Below are positions 1-60,446 of a DNA stretch of 64,000 nucleotides, piece after piece (position 1 is the first letter of the stretch; the number at the start of each line of letters is the position of its first letter). Source of the stretch: Candidatus Gastranaerophilales bacterium (GTDB lineage: Bacteria; Cyanobacteriota; Vampirovibrionia; Gastranaerophilales; Gastranaerophilaceae); contig CALUVV010000005.1 of NCBI GenBank assembly GCA_944324305.1, positions 1-64,000 on the forward strand, given 5' to 3'. The notes below the pieces were generated by a model that searched no databases, was not told the origin of the DNA, and worked only from the letters and a program-made list of their open reading frames with translations. The translations under genes and the position numbers were made by a program.

Positions 1-216
1 TTCTTCTTTCTTTACGCCTTCGGCACCTTCCTCTTTTTTAGGTGTCTCTGCGTTTTCTTCTTTCTTTACGCCTTCGGCACCTTCCTCTTTTTTAGGTGTC
101 TCTGCGTTTTCTTCTTTCTTTACGCCTTCGGTACCTTCTTCTTTTTTAGGTGTCTCTGCGTTTTCTTCTTTCTTTACACCTTCGGTACCTTCTTCTTTTT
201 TAGGTGTCTCTGTATT
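1..216 (-). repeat. 54-bp tandem repeat (18 aa), at least four units
   Basis: The motif tttacgcc/tttacacc recurs at 11, 65, 119 and 173, an exact 54-bp period. In the coding frame each unit reads approximately GVKKEENAETPKKEEGTE. The two left units are almost identical in DNA and the right ones carry silent or Ala/Thr changes, so the array seems to grow toward the left edge. It continues out of the window. Confidence 0.9.
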
Positions 217-693
217 TTCTTTGTTTTTAGGGGCTTCAGCACCTTCATTTTTAGCGGTTTCGGTAGTATTGCCTTTTTTAGGTTCAGGTGTTTCTGTCTT
301 CGGTTTTACATCAACATCTTCGGCTTTTTTACCTCGAATCTTGTTCCAAAGTTTTTCACCGCTTTCACCAATGCTTACAAAGAAGTTTTTAACATTACCC
401 ATAAATCCGAGTTCTTTTCCTTCTTCAGCAACAGCTTTTGTTAAAGCTTTTTTACCGACAGCGATACTCAGACCGACATATGCTGCTGCCAGTAAGCCGA
501 CTACAGTACCGATTATTGCAGGTGCTTTACTTTTTTTCTTTTCTTCGGCAGCACCTTCTTTTTCAAAAGAATCTGCGGGAGCTTCAGCTTTAGGAGCCTG
601 AGTTGTATATTTACCCGGTGAATTTATTAAGTCCTGAGCATTTACAGGAGCGGCATCACCGCGGAAATTTACATTGGAAACAGAACTTATCAT
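1..693 (-). CDS. Tagged membrane-anchored repeat protein (partial, 3' end outside window)
   Basis: The reading frame is open from an ATG at 693 (good ribosome site AAGGAGG just upstream) to the left edge, giving 231 codons with no stop. The N-terminus MISSVSNVNFRG carries the VNFRG form of the [IV]xFxG tag seen on several proteins here. A hydrophobic segment follows at about residues 55-76 (APAIIGTVVGLLAAAYVGLS), then a charged region rich in Lys, Glu, Pro and Thr that ends in at least four 18-residue tandem repeats. The likely topology is a short cytoplasmic N-terminus, one membrane helix and a long disordered tail. I do not recognise a functional family. The repeated tail may vary in length between strains. 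Confidence 0.8.
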   Translation of the reverse strand, partial: MISSVSNVNFRGDAAPVNAQDLINSPGKYTTQAPKAEAPADSFEKEGAAEEKKKSKAPAIIGTVVGLLAAAYVGLSIAVGKKALTKAVAEEGKELGFMGNVKNFFVSIGESGEKLWNKIRGKKAEDVDVKPKTETPEPKKGNTTETAKNEGAEAPKNKENTETPKKEEGTEGVKKEENAETPKKEEGTEGVKKEENAETPKKEEGAEGVKKEENAETPKKEEGAEGVKKEE

Positions 694-4550: not shown

Positions 4551-7514
4551 ATGAAATGTCCGATTTGCAAAAAAACAATTCCTGACAATGCGCTTAAATG
4601 CCCTTATTGTAAGGCTCGTACAGGATTAATCTGTAAAAATTGCGGCACTGTAAATTCTATATTTGACTTTACCTGCAAAAAATGCGGCAAAGAAATATTA
4701 AAAGCGTGTCCGAACTGTAACGGCGTAAATTTTCCTAATGCCGAAAAATGCCGAAAATGCGGTTATTTATTCCCAACAAGCAAACCTGAGGAAGAAGACG
4801 GGCAAATAAAACTTGAATATCCCGCAAATCTTGTTTCACAACAAAGTGCAAAAAATATTCTTATTAAAGGCCTGCTTTCTAATGATAAAAAAATTTTTTC
4901 ACTAAGCGGAGAAAAAGGCATTGGAAAAAGTCTTGTGTTAAAAGCAATTATGCATGATTTAAAGCACAGAAATTTTTCATGGCTATACGGTAAATGCACT
5001 CCGATTACACAGCTGACTTCCGGAGGTCTTATTCAGGATATTTTGCTGAATATATTTAATCTGCCGAATTTCTGCTTAAATAATCTCCAGTTTAAAAAAG
5101 ATGCTTCAAAATATTTTAAAAATGAGTTTCCGCATCTCAACAGCAATGAAATTTTTGACCTTATTAACTTTCTTTATCCGCATCAGGAAGGAACGTTTGA
5201 AGAAATTGCAGCGGCAAAAAACAGAACTTTTGATTTTCTGAATAAAATTTTTGACACAATAACTCTTAACAATAAATTTGTTATAGTAATTGATAACTTT
5301 GACTTCATTGACGGTTTTTCTTATGAATTTATCAGCCGCTACATAAAAAAAGAAAATGTATGGGGAAATTTAAAATTTCTGCTTATATACAATGAGCCTA
5401 AACCTGCTAAAGGATATTTTTATTTTCCGTCAAATAAAGATGAAAATATTTATCTTGATGTCGGCATTGCTCCTCTGGAATTTAAACAGATTAATACTCT
5501 GGTTGAGCAAAAAAACAATAAAATACAAGGCTTACCGCAGTTAAGCAAATCCGAATTACTTGAAATATATAAAATAAGCCGCGGAAATCCGTCATTTATA
5601 AATCACGCACTTGATTTATGTTTTGACTGCCAGTTGAGCGGACAACAATTTGAACTTGCAACGACTTTCACAGGAGTACTTGAATATAGGCTTGCACTGC
5701 TTTCACATATTAATCCGATAGCTTACGACATTTTGCTGGGTTCTGCAATTATAGGCGATAAGATTAATATAAACCTTATTAAAGAAATTTTTGAAACAGA
5801 TGATAAAACTTTCAGAGATGTAATGATATATTTGAAAAAAATGGATTACATCACACCCGTAAATGAGCTTTATTGCGAATTCAGCTCGCTGACATTATGG
5901 GAAACAATTATAAAGACAGCCAAAAACGATATTAATTATTCAAAAATTAACAAAAAAATCTTTAATCATCTGAACGGCTTTACCCTCAATTCACACGCAA
6001 TTCTCGGGATTATTGCGCAAAATCTCAAACAGCCCGAACTTGCGCTTGATATTTGGACTAAGAATACAAGATTTGCGGCTTATGCAGGAGATTTGAACCT
6101 TTACGCAATCTCACAGAAACAATCTTTAGCACTTATAAACGAGTTTGATGAAAGTCAAACTTTAAAAATTCGTTATAATATTTCCGAACGGCTCGGAAAA
6201 CTTCTTGCAAACTCAAATCCTTCTGAAGCTATAGAATATCTGCCCGATGCAATTTCAAATGCACAGGCTGTAGGTGACAGCCCGAAAGAAATTGAACTTC
6301 TTGCATATCTTGCATCCTGCTGCAGAAAGACTGGTAATTATTTCGGTGAAGTTGAATGTGTAGATTCCGTGCTTAAAAAAGTTAAGCCCGAAGATGTCGT
6401 TGAAATTGCACTTCTCAAGACAACAAAACTTAACGCGCTTTTAAACATCGGAAATTGCGGACAAATTATAAATATGATTGACACTGAAATTATGCCTGTT
6501 CTGGACCAGTATTTCAGTAAAAAACAAAATGCCGCCGACCCGCAGTTAGGGTTTATGTATGAAACATGGCTTAAAACATATCTTGTACTTGCAAATGCTC
6601 TTGTAATGCAGGGAAATGACAGGTCTTTCGAAATATTGACAATTCTTTTTGATATCATTGACAGAAATCAAATTCAGGATGAATTGTTTATTTGCAAGTG
6701 TAAATTGACACTGGCCTTTGCAAACACAGTTAAAGGTAATTTCAAAGCTTCCGAACAGATGCTTGAAGAAGTTCTCAGATCATACCGCGAAAACGTAATG
6801 GATAATGAAACAATTTTAAGATGGAATTTCATTAACATTATAAATAACTTTTTCAGAAAACGTTATGACGGTGTTCAGGAAGATTTATTCCAGGTAGTAA
6901 CCTTTGCAAACAATAACGGTGATAACTTTACCAAGAATATTTTAAAAACTCTGCTCGGAAAAGTATTTAAAGATAATAATAATTCAAAGCAGGCAATGGA
7001 AATTTATAATGACCAGATTGCATATTTTGCTAAGGAGAAAATGGCTCTGGGAGCACTGTTAACCTGGTTTTTAATTGCGGATGCGACATTAATCACCGAA
7101 GGTCCTCAAAATGCAAGAGAAATCGCCGAACAGGCACTTGAGGTTGCTCAAAATCCGAAAATAGATAATTACTTCTTTGTAATTCTCCTAAAAATGGTTA
7201 TAGCTAAATGCTGCATAACCGTTTCGGACTTTGAAACCGCCAAATCCCATCTCGAAAGCGCAATATTAATCGCAAGAAAATTTAATATTAAAGACCTTCT
7301 ATCAAGATTATATATACTTTACGGCAAATATTTTCAGGAATTGGGTCTTATAAAGTCATCCCGCCAGCAGGAATACCTCAAAGGTGCCGAAAAAATGTAT
7401 AAGCAGGCAGAAGAATTGATTGCAAAAACAAAAAATGCTTATGTAAATTCCGATCTTAAAAAGGCTCAGAATGTTTTATCATCCTTCTGCAAGCTTAATA
7501 ATATAGAAATTTAA
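4551..7514 (+). CDS. Zinc-ribbon STAND-like ATPase with TPR-like C-terminus
   Basis: The 987-aa protein begins with two or three zinc ribbons (eight or more CxxC pairs in residues 3-75). A P-loop (GEKGIGKS) follows near residue 120, and a Walker B-type strand (FVIVIDNFDF) near 243. The remaining part, from about 480, is all-helical with TPR-like repeats. This order (sensor ribbon, NTPase, helical repeat scaffold) is that of STAND/predictor-ATPase signalling proteins. It is the last gene of the sigma factor unit. Its stop overlaps by 4 bp the convergent prepilin gene. Substrate or ligand is unknown. Confidence 0.8.
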   Translation: MKCPICKKTIPDNALKCPYCKARTGLICKNCGTVNSIFDFTCKKCGKEILKACPNCNGVNFPNAEKCRKCGYLFPTSKPEEEDGQIKLEYPANLVSQQSAKNILIKGLLSNDKKIFSLSGEKGIGKSLVLKAIMHDLKHRNFSWLYGKCTPITQLTSGGLIQDILLNIFNLPNFCLNNLQFKKDASKYFKNEFPHLNSNEIFDLINFLYPHQEGTFEEIAAAKNRTFDFLNKIFDTITLNNKFVIVIDNFDFIDGFSYEFISRYIKKENVWGNLKFLLIYNEPKPAKGYFYFPSNKDENIYLDVGIAPLEFKQINTLVEQKNNKIQGLPQLSKSELLEIYKISRGNPSFINHALDLCFDCQLSGQQFELATTFTGVLEYRLALLSHINPIAYDILLGSAIIGDKININLIKEIFETDDKTFRDVMIYLKKMDYITPVNELYCEFSSLTLWETIIKTAKNDINYSKINKKIFNHLNGFTLNSHAILGIIAQNLKQPELALDIWTKNTRFAAYAGDLNLYAISQKQSLALINEFDESQTLKIRYNISERLGKLLANSNPSEAIEYLPDAISNAQAVGDSPKEIELLAYLASCCRKTGNYFGEVECVDSVLKKVKPEDVVEIALLKTTKLNALLNIGNCGQIINMIDTEIMPVLDQYFSKKQNAADPQLGFMYETWLKTYLVLANALVMQGNDRSFEILTILFDIIDRNQIQDELFICKCKLTLAFANTVKGNFKASEQMLEEVLRSYRENVMDNETILRWNFINIINNFFRKRYDGVQEDLFQVVTFANNNGDNFTKNILKTLLGKVFKDNNNSKQAMEIYNDQIAYFAKEKMALGALLTWFLIADATLITEGPQNAREIAEQALEVAQNPKIDNYFFVILLKMVIAKCCITVSDFETAKSHLESAILIARKFNIKDLLSRLYILYGKYFQELGLIKSSRQQEYLKGAEKMYKQAEELIAKTKNAYVNSDLKKAQNVLSSFCKLNNIEI

Positions 7515-8274
7515 TAATTCATTTCCCAGCCGTCATTCAATATTTTGCCGAAACAGCCTCTAAAACGCGTACTGGATTTACACATAGAATTATATAGTCT
7601 TTCACGGGTTTCACGTGCATTGGCCGGCAAGGTGCATTCTTTCTTGATATTACAATCAGGCACAACCTCTTCTTCATCTATAGTACCGTTTTCGAAATAC
7701 GCCCAAAAGAACACATCTCTTCCGCCGATATTTGGTCCTTTCATACCATTGGTATCGACAAGAATATGGCTCCATTTAACATTATTGGAAGAATGCCCTG
7801 ACAAGGCCTCTATACACACGGAAGCACCGCTTCCGAGAACAGCACAATTAACATTGCCCCACCAATTTTTAACATTTTCTATACCGCCGCTTGAAACAGA
7901 AGCCCCGTTTAAATTTCTGTACTCACTATTTGGAATGCAGGGTGGTTCCAATTTGTCACACACGGTAACCGTCTTAAAATAAGTCTTTAAAAAATTATTT
8001 ACTTCCGTTTGGGATGTGAGTCCCGCCTCAGACAACGATACTGCATTTTTATCGGTTCTAAACTGTAAAAAAGCCTGTTGAAGTTCATTGTAAACCTTAT
8101 GAAGCTGAGTTACATAAGTCTTTTTCTGGTGATTTTGAATTAATGATGGTACAGTCATTGCGGAAACTACACCTATGATACCCAAAGTCACCAATACTTC
8201 AGCAAGAGTAAAAGCCTTGCAGGAGCCTAAAGTATGCCCCCCCCCCGAGTTACATTTCGTAATATTGTGTTCAT
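7511..8274 (-). CDS. Type IV prepilin-like protein, phase-variable (frame OFF as assembled)
   Basis: The body has the class III-type prepilin leader (KAFTLAEVLVTLGIIGVVSAM), a coiled N-helix (NHQKKTYVTQLHKVYNELQQAF), a loop DTNGMKGPNIGGRDVF that looks like a Ca-binding pseudopilin site, and ends GCFGKILNDGWEMNY. The only start with a good ribosome site (AAAGGAG, 6 nt away) is the ATG at 8274, but a run of ten G lies between it and the leader; with G10 the ATG frame stops at TAG 15 codons on. Eleven or eight G would give one continuous ORF. Without the ATG only a TTG inside the leader (8194) could start, which would lose the signal. Substrate of PilD and pilus or secretion pseudopilus is expected. 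Confidence 0.8.
8237..8246 (-). repeat. G10 homopolymer in prepilin leader
   Basis: Ten consecutive C on the plus strand, i.e. ten G in the coding sense, directly after codons for NVTR. One added G restores the frame from ATG 8274 to the FTLAEV leader. Slipped-strand mispairing is the established mechanism for such tracts. Confidence 0.95.
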
Positions 8275-10298: not shown

Positions 10299-11005
10299 TT
10301 AATAATTCATTTCCCAGTTATCATTTAAGAGTTTTCCAAAGCAGCCATGCCAGGTGGCGTTATCCGCATTACAGGTTGTATTAAATAAATTTTCTCTTGT
10401 GTCTTTATCGCCCGGTGCGGTTGTAAGCGCGTATTCATCAACTATCCCGTTATTAAATAAGCCGAGAATAAAAACATCACGTCCTGCAATGTTAGGTCCC
10501 TGCTGTCCGTTAATATCAACATCAAAAATTGCAACCCGATTGTTATCTGCTGTACCTGAACTGCTAATTCCATAACCGAATGATACCCCGCTCGCAATAG
10601 TGACAAATGAAGATTGACCGGAACCTTTACCCATATTATAGCCGGAAAGTTTTTTGTAACTTGAAGCAAGACATGGGGTATTACTGCCGCAATCATTAAC
10701 AACTTTAAAATAGGTTTTTACAAAATTATCTAATGCTTCATTTGAAGTCAGACCTGCTTCTCTGAGATTTACGGCATTTTTATCAGTCATATACTGCTGT
10801 GCCGCCTGTTGAAGTTCATTATAGAACTTATGCATTTGAGTGACATAAGTTTTCCTCTGGTGATTTTGCATCAATGTAGGTACAGTCATTGCGGAAACTA
10901 CACCTATGATACCTAAAGTAACCAATACTTCAGCAAGAGTAAAAGCCTTGCAGGAGCCTAAAGTATGCCCCCCCCCCGAGTTACATTTCGTAATGTTTTT
11001 CTCAT
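10299..11005 (-). CDS. Type IV prepilin-like protein, phase-variable (frame OFF as assembled)
   Basis: This close paralogue of the 27.3-kb prepilin shows KAFTLAEVLVTLGIIGVV, the loop DINGQQGPNIAGRDVF and the C-terminus GCFGKLLNDNWEMNY. The ATG at 11005 has a perfect site (AAAGGAG, 6 nt). As at 8.2 kb, a G10 run (10968-10977) puts this ATG out of frame: it stops after about 15 codons at TAG. G11 or G8 would encode a leader of about 22 residues before Phe+1. The downstream TTG at 10925 lies inside the hydrophobic leader and is not a credible start. Pilus, pseudopilus or competence role is inferred from family. Confidence 0.8.
10968..10977 (-). repeat. G10 homopolymer in prepilin leader
   Basis: Same position and length as the tract at 8237-8246. 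The flanking 80 bp (from GTAACTC to past the FTLAEV codons) is nearly identical in the two genes. Confidence 0.95.
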
Positions 11006-21323: not shown

Positions 21324-21352
21324 AAAAAGGCCGGTTAAAAAACCGGTCTTTT
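21324..21352. terminator. Bidirectional terminator
   Basis: AAAAAGGCCGGTT and AACCGGTCTTTT arms with a short A loop, between the tail-fibre pair and the convergent tagged gene. Confidence 0.85.
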
Positions 21353-21869
21353 ATTGATTAAAATATTTTTCCATAATCCTTTGGATAACTTTATTAATTT
21401 CTGCTGCGCCCTTCTTAACTTTCTCAGGCATATGAAACTGTGTAGACGTTAAATCATCAAATTCCTTATCCATTAAAAGTGCAGTATTAAAAGCTTTAGA
21501 ATTCATATACTTTTCATCACAAATGAATTCTGATTTTTCTTTTTTTATAATCTTTCTTGTTAATCTTGCCAATTCCGTAAACATAGGAAGTGTTTCATCT
21601 GTAACTTCCAATAAATTATTATTAATTGCAATCGCATCTTCAGAAGGTATAGAGTAAGTATTTATATTTAAAAAATTATCCTGAACAGGGTTTGTATACC
21701 ACCTTTTAGCCAAATTGCTTTTTTTAAAAGCCTTTCTGAATTTGTGCAAATCCCGTCCTGAAAGTTCAACATTAAGCCAGCGCTCTTTTGTAATTACATC
21801 ATTTAAATCACGCGCCTTATCAAGACAGTAGCTCATATTCTTTACACCTGTAAAGGAAATTTTATCCAT
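21351..21869 (-). CDS. Tagged hypothetical protein (ISFTG), paralogue of next gene
   Basis: The 172-aa protein starts MDKISFTGVKNMSYCLDKA and is a paralogue of the neighbour at 21890-22444: both share LSGRDLHKFRKAFKK / FNGKDLTEFRNVIKK, NNNLLEVTDETLPMF / NNELLEVNDKNLPVF and a C-terminal VNDFIQNIMNRYF-like end. No membrane helix or known domain is seen. Ribosome site AGGT 9 nt before ATG. Function unknown. Confidence 0.75.
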   Translation of the reverse strand: MDKISFTGVKNMSYCLDKARDLNDVITKERWLNVELSGRDLHKFRKAFKKSNLAKRWYTNPVQDNFLNINTYSIPSEDAIAINNNLLEVTDETLPMFTELARLTRKIIKKEKSEFICDEKYMNSKAFNTALLMDKEFDDLTSTQFHMPEKVKKGAAEINKVIQRIMEKYFNQ

Positions 21870-21889: not shown

Positions 21890-22444
21890 TTATTCAAAAT
21901 ATCTGTTCATTATATTTTGTATAAAGTCGTTAACCTGCTGTGCCGAAGCTTTAACTTTATCCTTTTCAAAAAACTGACTTATAAAATTTAATCTGCTTAC
22001 GTTTGACGGAAGCTTGTCAGAAATCCTTGCACCATATATCAGAGCTTCGTCTGCAACATAATCCCTGTAATCATTGTCAACAATCATATCTTTATCATGT
22101 ATTGAACTTATTTTTCTTGTCAGTTTTGATATATAAGAAAAAACAGGTAAATTCTTATCGTTTACCTCGAGAAGCTCGTTGTTAACAAACACTCCGTCTT
22201 CAAAACGCCCCCCCCCCGAAACACACTCAATATTAAGTATTTCCGAAGAAATTTCATTATTGAATTTTGAAGGGGTGTCAGTAACTTTTTTTATCACATT
22301 ACGAAATTCCGTTAAATCTTTTCCGTTAAAATCATCTCTCAAAACCATTGAAAGACTTTTTGAAACAGTCGGTGCTTGTCTTGAAAATTCTGCCCAGGCA
22401 ATATTTCTAATTCCTGTAAAACTTACGTTATTAATCTTATCCAT
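21890..22444 (-). CDS. Tagged hypothetical protein (VSFTG) with in-frame G10 tract
   Basis: Paralogue of the downstream gene, 184 aa from ATG 22444 (MDKINNVSFTG; ATG 22453 would add three residues). Unlike its paralogue it carries an in-frame run of ten G (codons for SGGGR) in a loop region at about residue 78, where the sister protein has SIPSED. As assembled it is ON; a one-base slip would truncate it shortly after. Upstream there is no good ribosome site. Confidence 0.7.
   Translation of the reverse strand: MDKINNVSFTGIRNIAWAEFSRQAPTVSKSLSMVLRDDFNGKDLTEFRNVIKKVTDTPSKFNNEISSEILNIECVSGGGRFEDGVFVNNELLEVNDKNLPVFSYISKLTRKISSIHDKDMIVDNDYRDYVADEALIYGARISDKLPSNVSRLNFISQFFEKDKVKASAQQVNDFIQNIMNRYFE
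22208..22217 (-). repeat. G10 homopolymer, in frame
   Basis: TCG followed by nine G codons-worth, coding S-G-G-G-R. The 15-bp block TCG-G9-CGT is identical to that in the prepilin leader at 28.0 kb, though the reading frame use differs. Confidence 0.9.
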
Positions 22445-22524
22445 AGCAATCATAAAACCCGTAAAAAAAATTTTTGCGTGTGATATAATTATTTTACAGA
22501 ATTTAATAATTGGAGAAAAAGATT

Positions 22525-24874: not shown

Positions 24875-25534
24875 ATGATTAAAAACTTTATTTACACAAA
24901 CAGTACAAAACCGGGCTTCACACTTGCGGAAGTTTTGATAACTGTGGGCATAATAGGCGTTGTTGCTGCGCTAACAATGCCAGTATTAGTAGGTAATTAC
25001 CAGAAAAAACAAACTGTAACAAAATTAAAAAGAGCTTTTTCTGTTCTTTCGCAGGCTGTCCTAATGTCTGAACTTGATAATGGAAGTACGGAGTTTTGGA
25101 ATTATAATCTTGAAGCAAAAGAATTTTATGATATATATCTGAAAAAATACTTAATTACTACAGAAGACGTTCAATTTTCAGAAATAAGAAAAGTTGTAAC
25201 ATACAGATACTTAAATAATGTCGAGGCTGAGGGAGCCATAGGAAATAACAATTCATACGCTATTAAATTAAACGACGGCACATTTGTTATCATTGACGGC
25301 TGGTTCGACGCAATTGAAGGCAATCATCGAAATATTATATTTGATATAAACGGTCTTGCGAAACCAAATAAAATAGGCAGGGACGTTTTTTATTTTCGAC
25401 TATACAAAAAAAAGGGACTTATAGGTTACGACGAAAGCGGAGACCAGGGTTGTGAAAGAAATGCATCAGGATATAGCTGTAGTCAAAAAATAATGGAAGA
25501 CGGCTGGGAGATTAAAGATGATTACCCCTGGTAA
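24875..25534 (+). CDS. Type IV prepilin-like protein, XRE-controlled
   Basis: The 219-aa protein has leader KPGFTLAEVLITVGIIGVVAALTMP (cleavage after PG, Phe+1 and Glu+5 present), a helix with QKKQTVTKLKRAF, the Asn-Gly loop DINGLAKPNKIGRDVFYFRLY and the end CSQKIMEDGWEIKDDYPW. No G tract in the leader. The divergent XRE gene and the promoter palindrome suggest on/off control by a repressor instead of slippage. Confidence 0.88.
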   Translation: MIKNFIYTNSTKPGFTLAEVLITVGIIGVVAALTMPVLVGNYQKKQTVTKLKRAFSVLSQAVLMSELDNGSTEFWNYNLEAKEFYDIYLKKYLITTEDVQFSEIRKVVTYRYLNNVEAEGAIGNNNSYAIKLNDGTFVIIDGWFDAIEGNHRNIIFDINGLAKPNKIGRDVFYFRLYKKKGLIGYDESGDQGCERNASGYSCSQKIMEDGWEIKDDYPW

Positions 25535-25851: not shown

Positions 25852-25878
25852 AAAAGGCGGATATAAACCCGCCTTTTA
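25851..25878. terminator. Bidirectional terminator
   Basis: AAAAAGGCGG and CCGCCTTTT arms with a 9-nt loop between convergent genes. Confidence 0.85.
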
Positions 25879-26145
25879 AATTTCAATACTTAGATTTTGC
25901 TGCTTGTTTAATTCATTCAACTCTTTATTAACTTTCAAAAAATTATACGATGCAAATAACGAACTAAGAAACCCAAAAGTTATAAGTGCAAGACCTGCAA
26001 CATTATTTTTAACAGGCTGCGACAATCCAAGCATTCCTAATCCAGACGCCCCTAGAAGCATAGATAAATTTCGTTTTTGTTTAAGTTGCTCCCGACGATT
26101 ATTTACAGCATTTACATTTCCAACACCTACAGCACTAATAGACAT
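25876..26145 (-). CDS. Small membrane protein behind MRC leader element
   Basis: The 89-aa product starts MSISAVGVGNVNAVNN and has two hydrophobic segments (LSMLLGASGLGMLGL and VAGLALITFGFLSSLFASYNF) and a coiled acidic/basic end. Start at 26145 follows AAAGGGAAAATC. Its 5' region carries one of five copies of the dispersed leader element (26164-26294). Function unknown. Confidence 0.65.
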   Translation of the reverse strand: MSISAVGVGNVNAVNNRREQLKQKRNLSMLLGASGLGMLGLSQPVKNNVAGLALITFGFLSSLFASYNFLKVNKELNELNKQQNLSIEI

Positions 26146-27328: not shown

Positions 27329-28038
27329 TTAATAGTTCATTTCAAAATTGTCATTTAAAAGTTTGCCGAAGCAGCCTGTCCAAGAGCCGTTATCTGAAGT
27401 ACAATTAGCAGTAAACAAATTTTCTCTTGTATCCTTATCACCCGGGGCGGTTGCAAGCTCGTATTCATCCACTATTCCGTTATTGAACAAGCCCAGTATA
27501 AATACGTCACGTCCTGCAATATTAGGACCTTGCGGTCCGTTTATATCTACATCAAAAATTGCAATCCTGTTGTTATCTGCGATACCGGTGTTTGTAATGC
27601 CGAAACCGAACGATGCTCCGCTTGCAATAGTAACATTCAATTGTTGTCCTGTACCTTTCCCGAGATCAGTCCCTGATATCTTTCTGTAATTTGCGGCAAA
27701 GCAGGGCTGCTGAGAAGCTCCGCAATCATTAACAACTTTAAAATATGTTTTTACAAAATTATCTAACGCTTCATTTGAAGTCAGACCTGCTTCTCTTAGA
27801 TTTACGGCATTTTTATCAGTCATATACTGCTGTGCTGCCTGTTGAAGCTCATTATAAACTTTATGAATTTGCGTCACATACGTCTTTTTTTGATGATTTT
27901 GCATCAAAGTAGGTACGGTCATTGCGGAAACTACACCAATTATACCTAGAGTAACAAGAACCTCAGCAAGAGTAAAAGCTTTGCAGGAGCCTAAAGTACG
28001 CCCCCCCCCCGAGTTACATAACTTAATAAATCTTTCAT
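27329..28038 (-). CDS. Type IV prepilin-like protein, phase-variable (frame OFF from true ATG)
   Basis: Close paralogue of the 10.3-kb prepilin (same AGLTSNEALDNFVKTYFKVVND, DINGPQGPNIAGRDVF and GCFGKLLNDNFEMNY). The ATG at 28038 has AAGGAG at ideal distance but with G10 (28001-28010) it ends at TAG after 15 codons. A GTG at 28045 is in frame with the body, but it overlaps the ribosome site itself, so it can hardly start. G11 or G8 would put the ATG in frame. Same logic as the other two tracts. Confidence 0.8.
28001..28010 (-). repeat. G10 homopolymer in prepilin leader
   Basis: Third tract of exactly ten G at the same codon position in a prepilin leader (after GTAACTC, before CGTACTTTAGG). 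Confidence 0.95.
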
Positions 28039-28101
28039 AAAACACTCCTTTTATTCTTTTTACAATATTATTTTAACATTGTTTCCAAACTTTTACAATA
28101 T

Positions 28102-33058: not shown

Positions 33059-33089
33059 TAATAACAACATATTGATAGAAGGAGCATAT

Positions 33090-33710
33090 ATGAATTTTAG
33101 AGCTTTTACATTAGCTGAAACATTAATTACTATTGGTATAATTGGAATTATTGCCGCCCTGACATTACCGTCTTTAATTGAAAAGCATCAAAAAAAAGTT
33201 ACAGTGACAAGACTTAAGGCTTTTAATTCAATAATGGCACAAGCGTTCCAGACTGCAAAATTAGAGTATGGAGATTGGGAAAATTGGGATAACAACAACT
33301 TTGGAGAAAGCAGCTCTGATAAAGGAGACGGCAAGCAACAATTATTATGGCTTGAAAAATATTTATTTCCGAACATTAAACACATTGATGCATACTCTAA
33401 AGGCAAATACGCTGTAGTAGCTTTGTCAAACGGTTCCGGTTTCTCAACATATAACAGTCTTTACTTTTTTTGTGTGAAATATTCTGATTGTAAAAAGGTT
33501 ATGGAAGATTATGATACTCGTTCAAGATTTATTTTTCAATTTTCATCCGTAAACGGCTTTGAGCCTTATAACTGCGGCTGGAAAGGAACAAGAGAAGAAC
33601 TGTTTACAACTAATTCATGCAGACATTTGTGTTCCAAAACGAGCAGCGGCATGTGTGCAAAATTAATACAGTATGACGGATGGGAAATTAGAGATGATTA
33701 TCCATGGTAA
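33090..33710 (+). CDS. Type IV prepilin-like protein, XRE-controlled
   Basis: 206 aa from ATG 33090 (MNFRAFTLAETLITIGIIG), with site AGAAGGAG; the TTG start further up is not needed. Shares the EKHQKKVTVTRLKAFNSIM helix and C-terminal DGWEIRDDYPW with the prepilin at 24875. No G tract. Its promoter is overlapped by a symmetric operator next to an XRE gene. Confidence 0.88.
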   Translation: MNFRAFTLAETLITIGIIGIIAALTLPSLIEKHQKKVTVTRLKAFNSIMAQAFQTAKLEYGDWENWDNNNFGESSSDKGDGKQQLLWLEKYLFPNIKHIDAYSKGKYAVVALSNGSGFSTYNSLYFFCVKYSDCKKVMEDYDTRSRFIFQFSSVNGFEPYNCGWKGTREELFTTNSCRHLCSKTSSGMCAKLIQYDGWEIRDDYPW

Positions 33711-36349: not shown

Positions 36350-36946
36350 ATGAACAATATAAGTTTTCAAGGGCACTCAAGCCTTATTCTCAACCCCAAA
36401 GCATACGATAAAGCAAGAATTACAACTTCAAACGCATACAGACATCTTACCTCTGCAAATAATTGCAAACTTACTAACGGTAAAGTGTTTACCTCTAAAG
36501 CGGATGCTCAAAATCTAGCCGTTATAATCAGAAATGAAAAAGACGGAATTATAAAACATGTACCTGTAAACGGCAGAATTCAAAAAGTTGTTGACGAAAT
36601 AGCACAAAAAGTTGACGAATTAAAAGAAATGTCCAAAGGTAAACTGACAGCCTGGATTATCGGCGGTGAAAACATAGGAAGTCCAAACGGCGGAAAAACA
36701 ATCGAAGCAGTTAATAAAATAGCGGATGTAATTTGCGACAGACCTGATATTGATACTTCAATACTCGCAGGCAGCAGAAGCGGCGAGGACAGAATAGTCC
36801 TTCACACTTTGAATAATCAATTGGAAATTACTCTCGATAAGTTTGTAAAACTTAACCCCGAAACTAAAAAACCTGTTATATCAGAATTAGAAAAATACTT
36901 TGATATAGTAGAACTTAATAATACCGAACTTTCAGGGACGGTATAA
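36350..36946 (+). CDS. Tagged hypothetical protein (ISFQG)
   Basis: 198 aa from ATG 36350 after AAAGGAG. Starts MNNISFQGHSSLILNPKAYD; no signal peptide or membrane helix. The middle contains TAWIIGGENIGSPNGGKTIEAVNKIADVI. Function unknown. Overlaps the convergent YkgJ-like gene by 15 bp. Confidence 0.75.
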   Translation: MNNISFQGHSSLILNPKAYDKARITTSNAYRHLTSANNCKLTNGKVFTSKADAQNLAVIIRNEKDGIIKHVPVNGRIQKVVDEIAQKVDELKEMSKGKLTAWIIGGENIGSPNGGKTIEAVNKIADVICDRPDIDTSILAGSRSGEDRIVLHTLNNQLEITLDKFVKLNPETKKPVISELEKYFDIVELNNTELSGTV

Positions 36947-41918: not shown

Positions 41919-42437
41919 TTATGCATCAAAGTCAGTTTTCATGACATTGTGCGCAAAACCAGTTAAAAAGCCTACGCCTGCACCTGCAACAAGGAACGGT
42001 ACAGCGGGTCTTTTGATTTTAAGCATAACATGGTATGCGGTTGTAAAACGTCTTGTTAAACTCTTAGACATTTCATCAACATTTCTGATAATTCCGCGGA
42101 ATTCTTTACCTGCAACGGAATTTTCTCCGCCGAGAGCCTTAACTTTAGCAGTAATACTCTTACTTGTAAAAGCATCCTTGTCGTTGGAATCAATCATTTT
42201 AATAAAAACATCCTGAGCTTTTGATTTTATACCGTTGCCTCTGAAATCATCAGCTTTAGCCCTGTTTGTTACTTTACGGCAGTAATTAAGCATTGAACGG
42301 CGGCTTATATTATCTTCCTGTTTTTGAACAGGATAAAGATATTTTAAAGCATATCCGCCTGCCATCCCCACTGCTGTTGATTTAACAACCGTATAAAGTT
42401 TTGAATTTTCATTTTGTCCTACTGCACTTACTGTCAT
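41919..42437 (-). CDS. Membrane-linked hypothetical protein
   Basis: 172 aa, starts MTVSAVGQNENSKLY, similar to MSISAVGVGN of the 25.9-kb gene. A Gly-rich N-terminal segment and a C-terminal hydrophobic segment (RPAVPFLVAGAGVGFLTGF). AAAGG site. Family unknown. The 186-bp upstream gap has a GTTGAGT/ACTCAAC stem at 42488-42510 and a 22-codon ORF on the plus strand (42526-42594) without a good start site. Confidence 0.65.
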   Translation of the reverse strand: MTVSAVGQNENSKLYTVVKSTAVGMAGGYALKYLYPVQKQEDNISRRSMLNYCRKVTNRAKADDFRGNGIKSKAQDVFIKMIDSNDKDAFTSKSITAKVKALGGENSVAGKEFRGIIRNVDEMSKSLTRRFTTAYHVMLKIKRPAVPFLVAGAGVGFLTGFAHNVMKTDFDA

Positions 42438-52984: not shown

Positions 52985-53362
52985 CTAAACGGCCGTTTTC
53001 ATATTTTTTGTCAGTATTACATCATTGTAACCATCTCCATCCTCATCAATAAATTCCTTTGAGGTATGAATTTCTTTACCGCTGTCATCTGCTTCATAAT
53101 AATGATTAGTTACGGAAGTAAGTTTTTCTTTGCCATTCTCACCGGTTTTATAAACAGTCTCTTTATTTAGAATTCCGTTTATATATGTTTTCTTTGTATA
53201 TGTTCCGTCAGCGTTCATCTTAACAATTTCTTTTTTATTGTCAGAGCGCGAACCGTTAAACAAATTATCAATCTTGTCATGAAAACCTGCATTAACAGAT
53301 TTTTGATTAACCACCTGAGGTTTCTGCGTTCCGTTTACACCGTCGAAATTAATAAGTCCCAT
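52985..53362 (-). CDS. Tagged protein with Ca-loop motif (INFDG)
   Basis: 125 aa from ATG 53362 (MGLINFDGVNG). The end has an EF-hand-like loop DEDGDGYND. Copy C of the MRC leader lies upstream, and its whole 5' region (to the ribosome site) is a near-copy of that of the next gene (53617-54108). No membrane helix. Function unknown. Confidence 0.7.
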   Translation of the reverse strand: MGLINFDGVNGTQKPQVVNQKSVNAGFHDKIDNLFNGSRSDNKKEIVKMNADGTYTKKTYINGILNKETVYKTGENGKEKLTSVTNHYYEADDSGKEIHTSKEFIDEDGDGYNDVILTKNMKTAV

Positions 53363-53616: not shown

Positions 53617-54108
53617 TTATATAGACCATTCTGTCGAAGCATTATTTTCAGAGCCATATACATTACTCATTTTAAGCTCATCGGTTTTAAATTTTTGATT
53701 TAACTTATGTATGGTTTCATTTCCGGTCCAGTCGCTTTCAACTATCTCATCATAATATCCGTCATTATCAGTATCTCTGTATTCTTTTGTATTGCTTGAT
53801 TTAGATGTCGGATGATAAAATTTAATTGAAATTGCTTCTGAGTTGTCAAAATTACCGTCACTATTTCTATCGGCAAATACAGATGTTCTAATCACCTGCC
53901 CCATGCTGTTATAGGCTGTTTCCACTTTTTTTCCGTTTTCTATAACTGTCTCAACTTTAGAAACTTTACATAGCTCTTTAACGGAAACAGGTTTAATAGT
54001 AGCAAACAGTGAAGATAGATCCAACTGTTCAGTTTCAGCTTTTTGCTTACTTGATTTCGGCGGAATATCCTGATTACCTCCGATACCGTTTATACCTAAA
54101 AATCCCAT
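53617..54108 (-). CDS. Ca-loop repeat protein behind MRC leader
   Basis: 163 aa from ATG 54108 (MGFLGINGIGGNQDIPP). Two EF-hand/thrombospondin-type loops: DRNSDGNFDNSE (about 100-111) and DTDNDGYYDE (about 125-134). It is related to the downstream gene by 5' region and by the final loop. No membrane helix. Confidence 0.7.
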   Translation of the reverse strand: MGFLGINGIGGNQDIPPKSSKQKAETEQLDLSSLFATIKPVSVKELCKVSKVETVIENGKKVETAYNSMGQVIRTSVFADRNSDGNFDNSEAISIKFYHPTSKSSNTKEYRDTDNDGYYDEIVESDWTGNETIHKLNQKFKTDELKMSNVYGSENNASTEWSI

Positions 54109-54130
54109 GCAAATCTCCTTTCTTAATATC

Positions 54131-54193
54131 TCATAAATTGCACATGTATATAAACGACATTTCCTGAAAATTATTGACACTCGGGCACCGCAT
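54131..54193 (-). CDS. Upstream ORF of MRC leader element, copy D (20 codons)
   Basis: Same peptide as copy C, one synonymous base difference (CGG for CGA). Ends 22 nt before the gene start. Confidence 0.45.
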   Translation of the reverse strand: MRCPSVNNFQEMSFIYMCNL

Positions 54194-58186: not shown

Positions 58187-58963
58187 ATGGAAATTATTTT
58201 ACCTGTAATTGAAGAATTTAAACAAATTGAAGATGTTAAAGCAATAGCTCTTGCAGGTTCAAGAGCAGCTAACAGCGATGATGAAACATCAGATTTTGAT
58301 ATCTATATTTACTCGGATAAAGAAATTGATATTCAAAAAAGAACAAAAATTGCCCAACAATTTTCTGACCGATATGAGATTAATAATTGTTTCTTCGGCC
58401 CCGGTGATGAATGGTTTTTGAAAAACTCGTCCGTTCAGATTGATTTGATGTACAGGTCAAGAGAATGGATGGAGAATTCCATTGAAAATACCTGGGTTAA
58501 ACATTACCCTTGTGTAGGCTACTCAACCTGTTTTGTATTTAATATTAAAAATTCCGAAATCATTTATGACCCCGAAGGCTGGTACAAAAATTTACAAGAA
58601 AAAGTTTGTACGAATTATCCTGACGAACTTTCGAAAAATATCGTAAACAATAACCTGCCGCTTTTAAAAAATAAAATAGCCGCATCTTTTTACGAACAGG
58701 TCGAAAAAGCTTTAAAAAGAAAAGATTATGTAAGTCTAAACCACAGAATTTCCGCGTTTCTCGCAAGTTATTTTGATATACTTTTTGCGGTAAACAAAGT
58801 TCTTCACCCCGGAGAAAAAAGACTTGTACAGTACACAAAACTGCATTGCAAAAAAATTCCCCAAAACTTTGAAGAAGATATAAATAACTTAACAAGATAT
58901 CCGCTTGAAAATACTTTGGAAATACTTTCAAGACTGAACGAAAATCTTTTAAAAATTATTTAG
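58187..58963 (+). CDS. DUF4037-type nucleotidyltransferase
   Basis: 258 aa. GSRAANSDDETSDFDIYIYS holds the GS...DxD nucleotidyltransferase metal site near residue 24-43. A long helical part follows. Family members are related to aminoglycoside nucleotidyltransferases, but substrate is unknown. TAAAAT ends 6 nt before ATG and TTGGTT is 17 bp up, so it is a leaderless start. Overlaps the convergent gene by 8 bp. Confidence 0.8.
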   Translation: MEIILPVIEEFKQIEDVKAIALAGSRAANSDDETSDFDIYIYSDKEIDIQKRTKIAQQFSDRYEINNCFFGPGDEWFLKNSSVQIDLMYRSREWMENSIENTWVKHYPCVGYSTCFVFNIKNSEIIYDPEGWYKNLQEKVCTNYPDELSKNIVNNNLPLLKNKIAASFYEQVEKALKRKDYVSLNHRISAFLASYFDILFAVNKVLHPGEKRLVQYTKLHCKKIPQNFEEDINNLTRYPLENTLEILSRLNENLLKII

Positions 58964-60446
58964 TTTCTTTTAATGTTGAAGACTTTATTATTTTTATAAG
59001 GTCTTCAACTTTTACACCAAGACCTTTTTCATAAGCCTCCGCATTTTCGGTAATTTCCCGAATAAGTGCTTCAGCACGTTTAGGTTCTACGCCCATTGAC
59101 ATATCATATATAAAGTTTGTGTATTTATACTTCGGTAAATTTTTATCCCTGTAAAAGCTCAGCCATCTGCCTGAAGGGGAATGCGTGTCCGTGCAGCCCC
59201 AATCCATTTCAACCAGACCGCGCCCCTCAATAGTTCCTTTTGGTTTTAGACCTCTTTCAAACAGCATTTGTCTTATAGCTGTCATTTCTTCCACATTACA
59301 ACCGCAATTGGAATCAAGTAAATCACGAATTATTTTTTGTTCGAATTCGGGATTTTCTTGTGCAAATCCTATCAGTTCTTTCGCAAAGGCAGTATTTCTT
59401 CCTTTTTCAAACTCAAGATTAAATACACCATCGCAGTCATCAGGTTTTGCATATTTTTTAATATTTTCGAGCAGTTTTGCGAGTAACTCTGTTTTTTGTT
59501 CAGGGTTTTCAAGAAGCATTATTTCTTTTTTTACAGAATGAATTAATTTATTCATTTCCTTCCCTGACTTACCTTCCATTGCCGCAAGGTTAGCATTAAT
59601 TAATTCCAAACCTTTAAGCACGGGGATCGGCTCATCAGCTTTTCTCAAAATAACGCCCATATCTTCAAGTTTAGCCCGAATAATATTTTTTTCTTCATTA
59701 CTCATGCCCATAGCACTTGTAATATACCTGCCGTCTTTTTCAAATACTAAACGCATACTCTTTTCTTTGCCGTCCGCTGACTTTTCTTTATAGAACCATG
59801 CCCGTTTAGGTTCACGGTCAGAACCTGATTTCGGAATAAATTCACCTTCTTCTAATAAAGTTGTCCTGCCGTCGGCAAATCTTTCTTCGATTTTCAGGTT
59901 TCCTTTATTATCAAGGGATTTTACGGTAGTTGATAATAAATCTCCGTCTTTATATTCTTTTATTTCCACACCTGCTTTGTGTTCGTCTTTTATAATATCA
60001 ACAGTTTCAGAACCGTTCTTTAAAGTTCCGTCAGGGTTTGTAAATTTTGCGGGAACATCCGGAGTATTTTTAGTTTTAGGGGGAACCTCTCCGCCTGTTT
60101 CTCCGCTTGATTTAGGGTTAACATCATCGGATGCACCTTTTCCTTTAGACGAAACATCATTTATAATTTCTCCGCCTTTTTTCTCGCCGGCTTCTGCTAT
60201 ATCATCTGCTGATTTTTTAGCACCGCCAAGCAATTTTTGCACGCCTTCCCCAAGGTGGCCTTTACGTCCCGCAATGCCAAGCCCGATTACTGCAGCCAAA
60301 GCCGTTGCTCCGATCATATATTTTGCGGCATTTGATTTTTCTTTATCAGCAGGCTCAACCTGTTTTTGAGTTTCGTCTTTTCTTGCTTCCTGCTGTACTT
60401 GTGTCGGTGTTTCAACGCCCTTAAATGCAATTTTATCAATAGACAA
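58956..60446 (-). CDS. Large tagged membrane protein (IAFKG) behind MRC leader
   Basis: 496 aa from TTG 60446 (AAGGAG 9 nt away): MSIDKIAFKGVETPTQ. A hydrophobic segment (AAKYMIGATALAAVIGLGIAG) near 40-60, then a disordered Gly/Lys/Pro linker, and a helical C-terminal region (ELIGFAQENPEFEQKIIRDLL). Family unknown. Copy E of the leader element is upstream. Confidence 0.7.
   Translation of the reverse strand: MSIDKIAFKGVETPTQVQQEARKDETQKQVEPADKEKSNAAKYMIGATALAAVIGLGIAGRKGHLGEGVQKLLGGAKKSADDIAEAGEKKGGEIINDVSSKGKGASDDVNPKSSGETGGEVPPKTKNTPDVPAKFTNPDGTLKNGSETVDIIKDEHKAGVEIKEYKDGDLLSTTVKSLDNKGNLKIEERFADGRTTLLEEGEFIPKSGSDREPKRAWFYKEKSADGKEKSMRLVFEKDGRYITSAMGMSNEEKNIIRAKLEDMGVILRKADEPIPVLKGLELINANLAAMEGKSGKEMNKLIHSVKKEIMLLENPEQKTELLAKLLENIKKYAKPDDCDGVFNLEFEKGRNTAFAKELIGFAQENPEFEQKIIRDLLDSNCGCNVEEMTAIRQMLFERGLKPKGTIEGRGLVEMDWGCTDTHSPSGRWLSFYRDKNLPKYKYTNFIYDMSMGVEPKRAEALIREITENAEAYEKGLGVKVEDLIKIIKSSTLKETK

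What the first reader, a model, noticed from the sequence alone, without database searches (positions are those of the whole stretch)
36350..36380. Short N-terminal [IV]xFxG tag shared by unrelated proteins
VNFRG (693), ISFTG (21869), VSFTG (22444), ISFQG (36350), INFDG (53362) and IAFKG (60446) all appear within the first 12 residues, after a polar start and without a signal peptide. The bodies share no visible homology except for the tandem pair. A common N-terminal tag on diverse proteins suggests a sorting or secretion signal, for example for an unrecognised export route to host or prey.
Basis: partly seen in the sequence, partly recalled or inferred. Interest (0 to 1): 0.75.

Follow-up and report, generated by a model that had tools for sequence, protein, structure and literature searches.

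The report
Shared N-terminal sorting tag in Gastranaerophilales
Unrelated proteins of these non-photosynthetic gut relatives of cyanobacteria begin with the same short, unfolded and strongly conserved peptide, which looks like an address label, most likely for a flagellum-type protein exporter that has no flagellar filament.

Summary
The tag is real. The strict [IV]xFxG form is not enriched genome-wide (elsewhere 3 seen, 2.1 expected). It is the short form of a wider two-part N-terminal signal: M-x-[IV]-x-x-[IV]-[NSQ], then a variable polar linker, then [STNA]F[TQKG][GSNR]. About 2-5% of Gastranaerophilales N-termini fit this. In genomes other than this one, 19/765 real starts fit versus 14/4088 internal-Met decoys (p 4e-8); other orders show no excess. 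In the named protein (36350+) every ortholog keeps the tag at 30-84% identity, through synonymous codon changes. AlphaFold leaves exactly residues 1-8 disordered; the rest folds like the deamidase CheD. Best mechanism, inferred: an export signal of a divergent flagellar-type type III system. The genome has FlhA, FlhB, FliO/P/Q/R, FliE/F/H and rod genes but no flagellin. A soluble duplicate of the FlhA docking domain is almost restricted to this order and sits directly upstream of a tagged MalQ in 28/30 genomes. Tagged cargo includes two MalQ-like enzymes, a glycogen-synthase-like enzyme, ADP-ribosylglycohydrolase, an mTERF protein and AAA ATPases. Export itself is unproven.

The parts
36350..36373 (+). 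Tag MNNISFQG (short form) of the 198-aa protein; predicted disordered
36374..36946 (+). Body of the tagged protein: CheD-like fold, no conserved Cys or His near the expected CheD active-site position (inferred from an approximate offset)
21846..21869 (-). Tag MDKISFTG of the 172-aa protein 21351-21869
22412..22453 (-). Tag MIAMDKINNVSFTG of the 187-aa paralog 21890-22453; the two starts differ by a short insertion between MDKI and SFTG
53339..53362 (-). Tag MGLINFDG of the 125-aa protein 52985-53362
60417..60446 (-). Tag MSIDKIAFKG of the 496-aa protein 58956-60446 (TTG start); a hydrophobic segment follows
658..693 (-). Tag MISSVSNVNFRG of a repeat-rich protein with a hydrophobic segment that runs off the window start

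Best explanation
The peptide is a two-part, intrinsically disordered N-terminal sorting signal (short linear motif) of Gastranaerophilales: M-x-[IV]-x-x-[IV]-[NSQ], a freely varying polar linker of 0 to about 35 residues, then [STNA]F[TQKG][GSNR]; in the compact form the two parts merge (MNNISFQG). Shown here: the tag exists, is enriched at real N-termini, is conserved in orthologs and is predicted to be unfolded in the one protein modelled. Inferred: it is read in the cytosol by the export gate of a divergent flagellar-type type III system (FlhA/FlhB/FliPQR with FliE/F/H and a rod but no flagellin), with the soluble protein that carries a FlhA cytoplasmic domain behind a coiled coil as receptor or adaptor that hands tagged cargo to membrane FlhA. 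The cargo (MalQ-like and glycogen-synthase-like enzymes, ADP-ribosylglycohydrolase, M16 peptidase, hydrolases, small membrane proteins) would leave the cytosol uncleaved. Where it ends up (periplasm, gut lumen, host or protist cell) is unknown.
For: Tag: 15 of 15 members of the 36350 family from the genome search keep [IV][SN]F[QT]G at 30-84% identity, with F and G invariant while codons vary synonymously. AlphaFold puts exactly residues 1-8 below pLDDT 50 while the body is confident, mean pLDDT 86.4 overall. All 30 tagged MalQ orthologs keep F at the tag position with linkers of different length. The 1027/921-aa glycogen-synthase-like pair keeps MRVYSVMP and [IL][ST]FTGN around a diverged linker. 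Composite tag in Gastranaerophilales other than G000: 19/765 starts versus 14/4088 decoys, p 4e-8; other orders 2/525 versus 5/2606, not significant. Exporter: FlhA, FliE, FliF, FliH, FliP and the FliO-P-Q-R locus, FlhB, FliM/N, FlgB/C and FlgF/G-type rod genes, no flagellin. The divergent FlhA is near universal in the family and coexists with a second, flagellar-type FlhA in some genomes, so it is not simply a decayed flagellum. Link: a soluble FlhA-C protein in 99 of 99 sampled genomes of the order and, outside it, only matches that look like full-length FlhA; it resembles the divergent FlhA (E about 1e-42) more than the flagellar one (about 1e-20). It lies 32-98 nt upstream of tagged MalQ, same strand, in 28/30 genomes, and the next gene also carries a tag-like N-terminus in most. 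A tagged gene lies next to FliR. G000 has one untagged and two tagged MalQ-like proteins. Precedent: Chlamydia GlgA, GlgB, GlgX, GlgP and MalQ carry type III signals (PMC4829429).
Against: No secretion or localisation data exist. Known type III signals lack a clear consensus, so a conserved motif is atypical. Some tagged proteins are multi-span membrane proteins or Cdc48-like AAA ATPases, odd cargo for injection. No outer-membrane channel was identified or searched for. FlhA outside the order (for example in f9 and f6) is not accompanied by the tag, so the link rests on the soluble FlhA-C protein, and that association is essentially one clade-level event plus one operon. A few genomes lack either FlhA or the soluble protein in the assembly (G156, G257, G278; G169, G262, G269).
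Confidence: 0.45

Rival explanations
1. The tag targets proteins to an internal scaffold or compartment (glycogen body, protein shell or membrane patch), and the soluble FlhA-C protein is a repurposed scaffold unit with no export role.
For: Several tagged proteins are storage-polysaccharide enzymes (two MalQ-like, one glycogen-synthase-like); others are ATP-dependent AAA machines or membrane proteins that could stay inside the cell.
Against: No shell or encapsulin genes were noticed; tags also sit on ADP-ribosylglycohydrolase, an mTERF protein and hydrolases that do not form one pathway; the neighbouring FlhA-C domain is a docking domain in characterised relatives (own knowledge).
Confidence: 0.2
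2. The tag is a docking motif for another route or partner: a chaperone, an envelope complex, or the inner membrane for the many tagged proteins with a hydrophobic segment behind the tag.
For: Tagged proteins with a following hydrophobic segment are common (window 60446 and 693, L006:16731, L017:17787, the gene next to MalQ).
Against: Many tagged proteins are soluble enzymes with no hydrophobic segment; no other receptor is linked by gene order.
Confidence: 0.15
3. Chance and composition: AT-rich genomes give N- and S-rich N-termini, and F-x-G is a common string.
For: The strict motif is not enriched outside the window; a 5-residue matrix gives only weak genome-wide excess.
Against: Conserved in every ortholog with synonymous codon changes; composite signal enriched 5-7 fold over internal-Met decoys in the same genomes and not in equally AT-rich f9.
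Confidence: 0.07
4. The start is conserved for translation or as part of the folded domain, not as a sorting signal.
For: N-terminal codons often carry expression constraints (own knowledge).
Against: Synonymous changes throughout the tag; predicted disorder; linkers of any length between the two parts.
Confidence: 0.05

Closest known systems
Type III secretion N-terminal signals (injectisome effectors and flagellar export substrates)
   Same: Located at the extreme N-terminus, polar and disordered, not a Sec signal peptide, on unrelated cargo, in a genome with a full type III export gate.
   Different: Known signals have no clear sequence consensus; here there is a recognisable two-part motif conserved across unrelated proteins and genera.
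Chlamydia type III-secreted glycogen enzymes (GlgA, GlgB, GlgX, GlgP, MalQ; PMC4829429)
   Same: Glycogen-metabolism enzymes turned into type III cargo through a signal; small membrane proteins with a signal followed by a hydrophobic segment recall Inc proteins (own knowledge).
   Different: Chlamydia uses an injectisome with a secretin and SctV; here the FlhA falls below both the FlhA and SctV curated cut-offs, and export is unproven.
Non-flagellar or filament-less flagellar type III systems (Myxo systems of Abby and Rocha, PMC3459982; Buchnera basal bodies, own knowledge)
   Same: Core export gate and basal body without filament.
   Different: Has an additional soluble FlhA cytoplasmic-domain paralog and coexists with a flagellar-type FlhA in some genomes.
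CheD chemoreceptor deamidase fold (2f9z chain C)
   Same: The body of the 36350 protein matches it (VIA-align Z 9.9, 128 residues, 3.0 A).
   Different: The family has one invariant Cys (C129), far from the expected CheD site, and no invariant His; the CheD match covers residues 31-165 only.

Membership tests
Type III secretion signal | Within the first ~30 residues of unrelated cargo, not a Sec signal peptide | tested here: met
   some linkers extend to about residue 50
Type III secretion signal | Unstructured N-terminus | tested here: met
   AlphaFold pLDDT < 50 for residues 1-8 only, one family tested
Type III secretion signal | Directs export through a type III apparatus | not testable with these tools
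   needs secretion assay or proteomics
Flagellar/non-flagellar type III apparatus | Core gate FlhA, FlhB, FliP, FliQ, FliR plus FliF ring | tested here: met
   FlhA, FlhB, FliP, FliF (21) by profile; FliQ and FliR only from gene order and appearance next to FliP
Flagellar/non-flagellar type III apparatus | FliI/SctN ATPase | not tested
   not searched by profile
Flagellum (motility organelle) | Flagellin | tested here: not met
   no PF00669 match in the 99.98% complete genome, controls positive
Injectisome (NF-T3SS, SctV type) | SctV above the curated equivalog cut-off | tested here: not met
   TIGR01399 585 < 692 bits; TIGR01398 FlhA 702 < 772 bits as well
Injectisome (NF-T3SS) | Outer-membrane secretin SctC | not tested
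   not searched
Sec/Tat secreted proteins | Hydrophobic signal peptide at the N-terminus | tested here: not met
   tagged N-termini are polar; judged from hydropathy, no SignalP available
CheD deamidase | CheD fold | tested here: met
   Foldseek E 9.9e-5, VIA Z 9.9
CheD deamidase | Catalytic Cys and His in CheD positions | tested here: inconclusive
   no invariant Cys at residues 50-60 and no invariant His in 16 sequences, but residue equivalence was inferred from an approximate offset, not from a residue-level structural alignment

The most novel reading that the evidence does not exclude
Gastranaerophilales, including human-gut species, run a filament-less flagellar-type exporter with its own soluble FlhA-domain receptor, and address dozens of unrelated proteins to it with a consensus two-part N-terminal motif, so that the secretome of a widespread, almost uncultured gut lineage could be read directly from sequence.
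Probability: 0.35. Interest if true: 0.85.

Novelty: new variant of a known kind. Interest (0 to 1): 0.68.

Why it matters
Gastranaerophilales are widespread in animal and human guts and their host interactions are unknown. Their leftover flagellar genes have been described only as an incomplete set that would not make a functional flagellum (PMC4040986). A sequence-readable sorting tag gives a list of candidate exported proteins and a specific receptor to test. If it is a type III signal, it would be a rare one with a real consensus, which would help the long-standing question of how type III substrates are recognised. It would also be a parallel to Chlamydia's export of glycogen enzymes in a lineage related to cyanobacteria.

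Tried and rejected
Strict [IV].F.G as the signal: not enriched outside the window. Unsupervised three-residue pattern search: dominated by pilin-like families and signal peptides; after their removal [GAS]F.[GAS] was 49 versus 20 expected clusters. A five-residue weight matrix from the confirmed families gave only weak genome-wide excess. Internal copies of the motif in tagged proteins: only 2, no clear excess. Pfam and NCBIfam: no family for any of the five complete window proteins; NagA_N on the 36350 family is below cut-off. Plain ORF choice for ortholog N-termini failed because loci are not all oriented alike; redone with tblastn. The search for related loci set used MNNISFQG as a seed, so its 16 hits are biased for the tag; I rely on the genome search set instead. 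No paper found in the held library describes such a tag or a secretion role for these genes.

Full report
Setting. The window is bases 1-64000 of contig C5 of a 2.2 Mb, 99.98% complete genome. Orthologs of the named protein lie in Candidatus Gastranaerophilales MAGs, the closest (94%) on a contig labelled Fusobacterium sp. CAG:439, so the genome is a gut Gastranaerophilales.

The observation. All six peptides are present at the stated positions. Within the window [IV].F.G at residues 2-12 occurs in 7 of 70 genes versus 0.31 expected, but in 400 kb elsewhere it occurs in 3 of 419 versus 2.1 expected. Taken literally, the motif is local. Reading other N-termini showed why: most tagged proteins have a longer form with a start such as MKITGIN, MRVLGIN or MQVQKIS, a polar linker and then SFTG, NFQG, TFKR, SFGR and the like.

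Statistics. A composite rule (hydrophobic residues near positions 3 and 6, an F-motif within 30 residues, polar and non-hydrophobic N-terminus) was set up after looking mainly at the window's genome. In four other Gastranaerophilales genomes it fits 19 of 765 real starts and 14 of 4088 internal-Met decoys (odds ratio 7.4, p 4e-8); in five genomes of other orders 2 of 525 versus 5 of 2606 (not significant); in the window's genome 18 of 927 versus 19 of 4565 (p 7e-6). Some ortholog N-termini of G004 had been seen before the rule was fixed, so the test is not fully blind. About a quarter of the matches are probably chance (for example an ABC transporter subunit). Gene starts come from a simple caller of my own, not from a standard annotation.

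Conservation. Fourteen orthologs of the 36350 protein found by whole-genome search, 30-84% identical, all keep [IV][SN]F[QT]G; F and G are invariant in 31 sequences, although 16 of these came from a search seeded with the tag. Codons vary synonymously. All 30 tagged MalQ orthologs keep the F with linkers of different length. Other ortholog pairs keep both parts and not the linker: MIYPISNIN...NINFKG / MIHPINIYN...NPNFTG (alpha/beta hydrolase), MRVYSVMP...LSFTGN / MRVYSVMP...ITFTGN (glycogen-synthase-like), MSVKAIN...QSFTGSF / MVVKAIN...LSFQGSF.

Structure. AlphaFold of the 36350 family: residues 1-8, exactly MNNISFQG, have pLDDT below 50; the body is confident (overall mean 86.4, pTM 0.87). 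The body matches CheD of Thermotoga (VIA Z 9.9, 128 residues, 3.0 A) and NTAN1 (Z 9.7), more weakly other deamidase-like folds. The family has no conserved Cys or His near the position expected for the CheD site (approximate equivalence), so it may be a pseudoenzyme. A disordered yet invariant segment is the mark of a short linear motif.

A candidate route. The genome has no flagellin but has FlhA with FliE, FliF and FliH beside it, FliM/N, FliO, FliP and by gene order FliQ and FliR, FlhB and FlgB/FlgC and FlgF/G-like rod genes. FlhA scores below the curated cut-offs for both FlhA and SctV. This divergent FlhA (about 730 bits) is near universal in the family, and genomes such as G167, G204, G210 and G255 also carry a second, flagellar-type FlhA of about 870 bits. 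So this is not merely a decaying flagellum, as earlier gene inventories suggested (PMC4040986).

A receptor candidate. A 490-aa soluble protein with the FlhA cytoplasmic domain behind an unrelated N-terminal part is present in 99 of 99 sampled genomes of the order; outside the order only matches that look like full-length FlhA appear. It occurs in all four families of the order; G169, G262 and G269 have FlhA but not this protein, and G156, G257 and G278 the reverse. It is closer to the divergent FlhA than to the flagellar one in the same genomes. In 28 of 30 genomes it lies 32-98 nt upstream of the tagged MalQ on the same strand, and the following convergent gene, a membrane protein, also has a tag-like, fast-changing N-terminus in most. 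Another tagged gene adjoins FliR. No excess of the tag was seen in families f5 (no FlhA), f9 and f6 (FlhA but no soluble paralog).

Cargo. Tagged proteins include two MalQ-like proteins, while a third MalQ in the same genome has no tag, a glycogen-synthase-like protein, an alpha/beta hydrolase and an mTERF-domain protein, an ADP-ribosylglycohydrolase, an M16 peptidase, a metallophosphoesterase and Cdc48-like AAA ATPases, and membrane proteins. In Chlamydia, fusions of GlgA, GlgB, GlgX, GlgP and MalQ are secreted in a type III-dependent way (PMC4829429).

Judgement. Shown: tag, conservation, predicted disorder in one family, exporter genes, the soluble FlhA-C protein and its operon-like arrangement with a tagged gene. 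Inferred: that the tag is the signal for that exporter (0.45). The order-level co-occurrence counts as one event, several tagged proteins are odd cargo, and an outer-membrane exit was not looked for. An internal scaffold or compartment remains the main rival (0.2).

Noticed in passing
window 7511-8194, 10299-10925, 24875-25534, 27329-28045, 33072-33710: Very large expansion of type IV pilin-like proteins (TLAEVLVTLGIIGVVSAMTVP...), at least 57 of 850 sampled proteins of the genome.
   Followed up: no
L018:10549-11610, L029:155-1912, L044:14468-16135, L046:6065-7315 and L046:4424-4750: Several proteins of different length share an N-terminus such as MGMAASQARYLGLTARKTNVEYEGQQINQ, with no Pfam family where scanned; possibly another class of substrate or structural subunit of the same exporter.
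   Followed up: partly
L045:10096-11574: The soluble FlhA cytoplasmic-domain protein has an unrelated ~130-residue N-terminal part that looks partly coiled-coil; it may be the actual tag reader.
   Followed up: partly
L013:1942-2889: Tagged bacterial protein with an mTERF domain (E 2.9e-10), a family known mainly from eukaryotic organelles (the last part own knowledge).
   Followed up: no
window 25876-26145 and 41919-42437: Two short membrane proteins start with M(S/T)(I/V)SAVG, a possible further variant of the tag.
   Followed up: no
window 52985-53362 and 53617-54180: Two neighbouring proteins, possibly related, with D-x-D-G stretches in their C-terminal halves and starts MGLINFDG and MGFLGINGIGG.
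   Followed up: no
window 1-250: Tandem repeat coding for KKEEGAEGVKKEENAETP in the tagged gene that runs off the window start.
   Followed up: no
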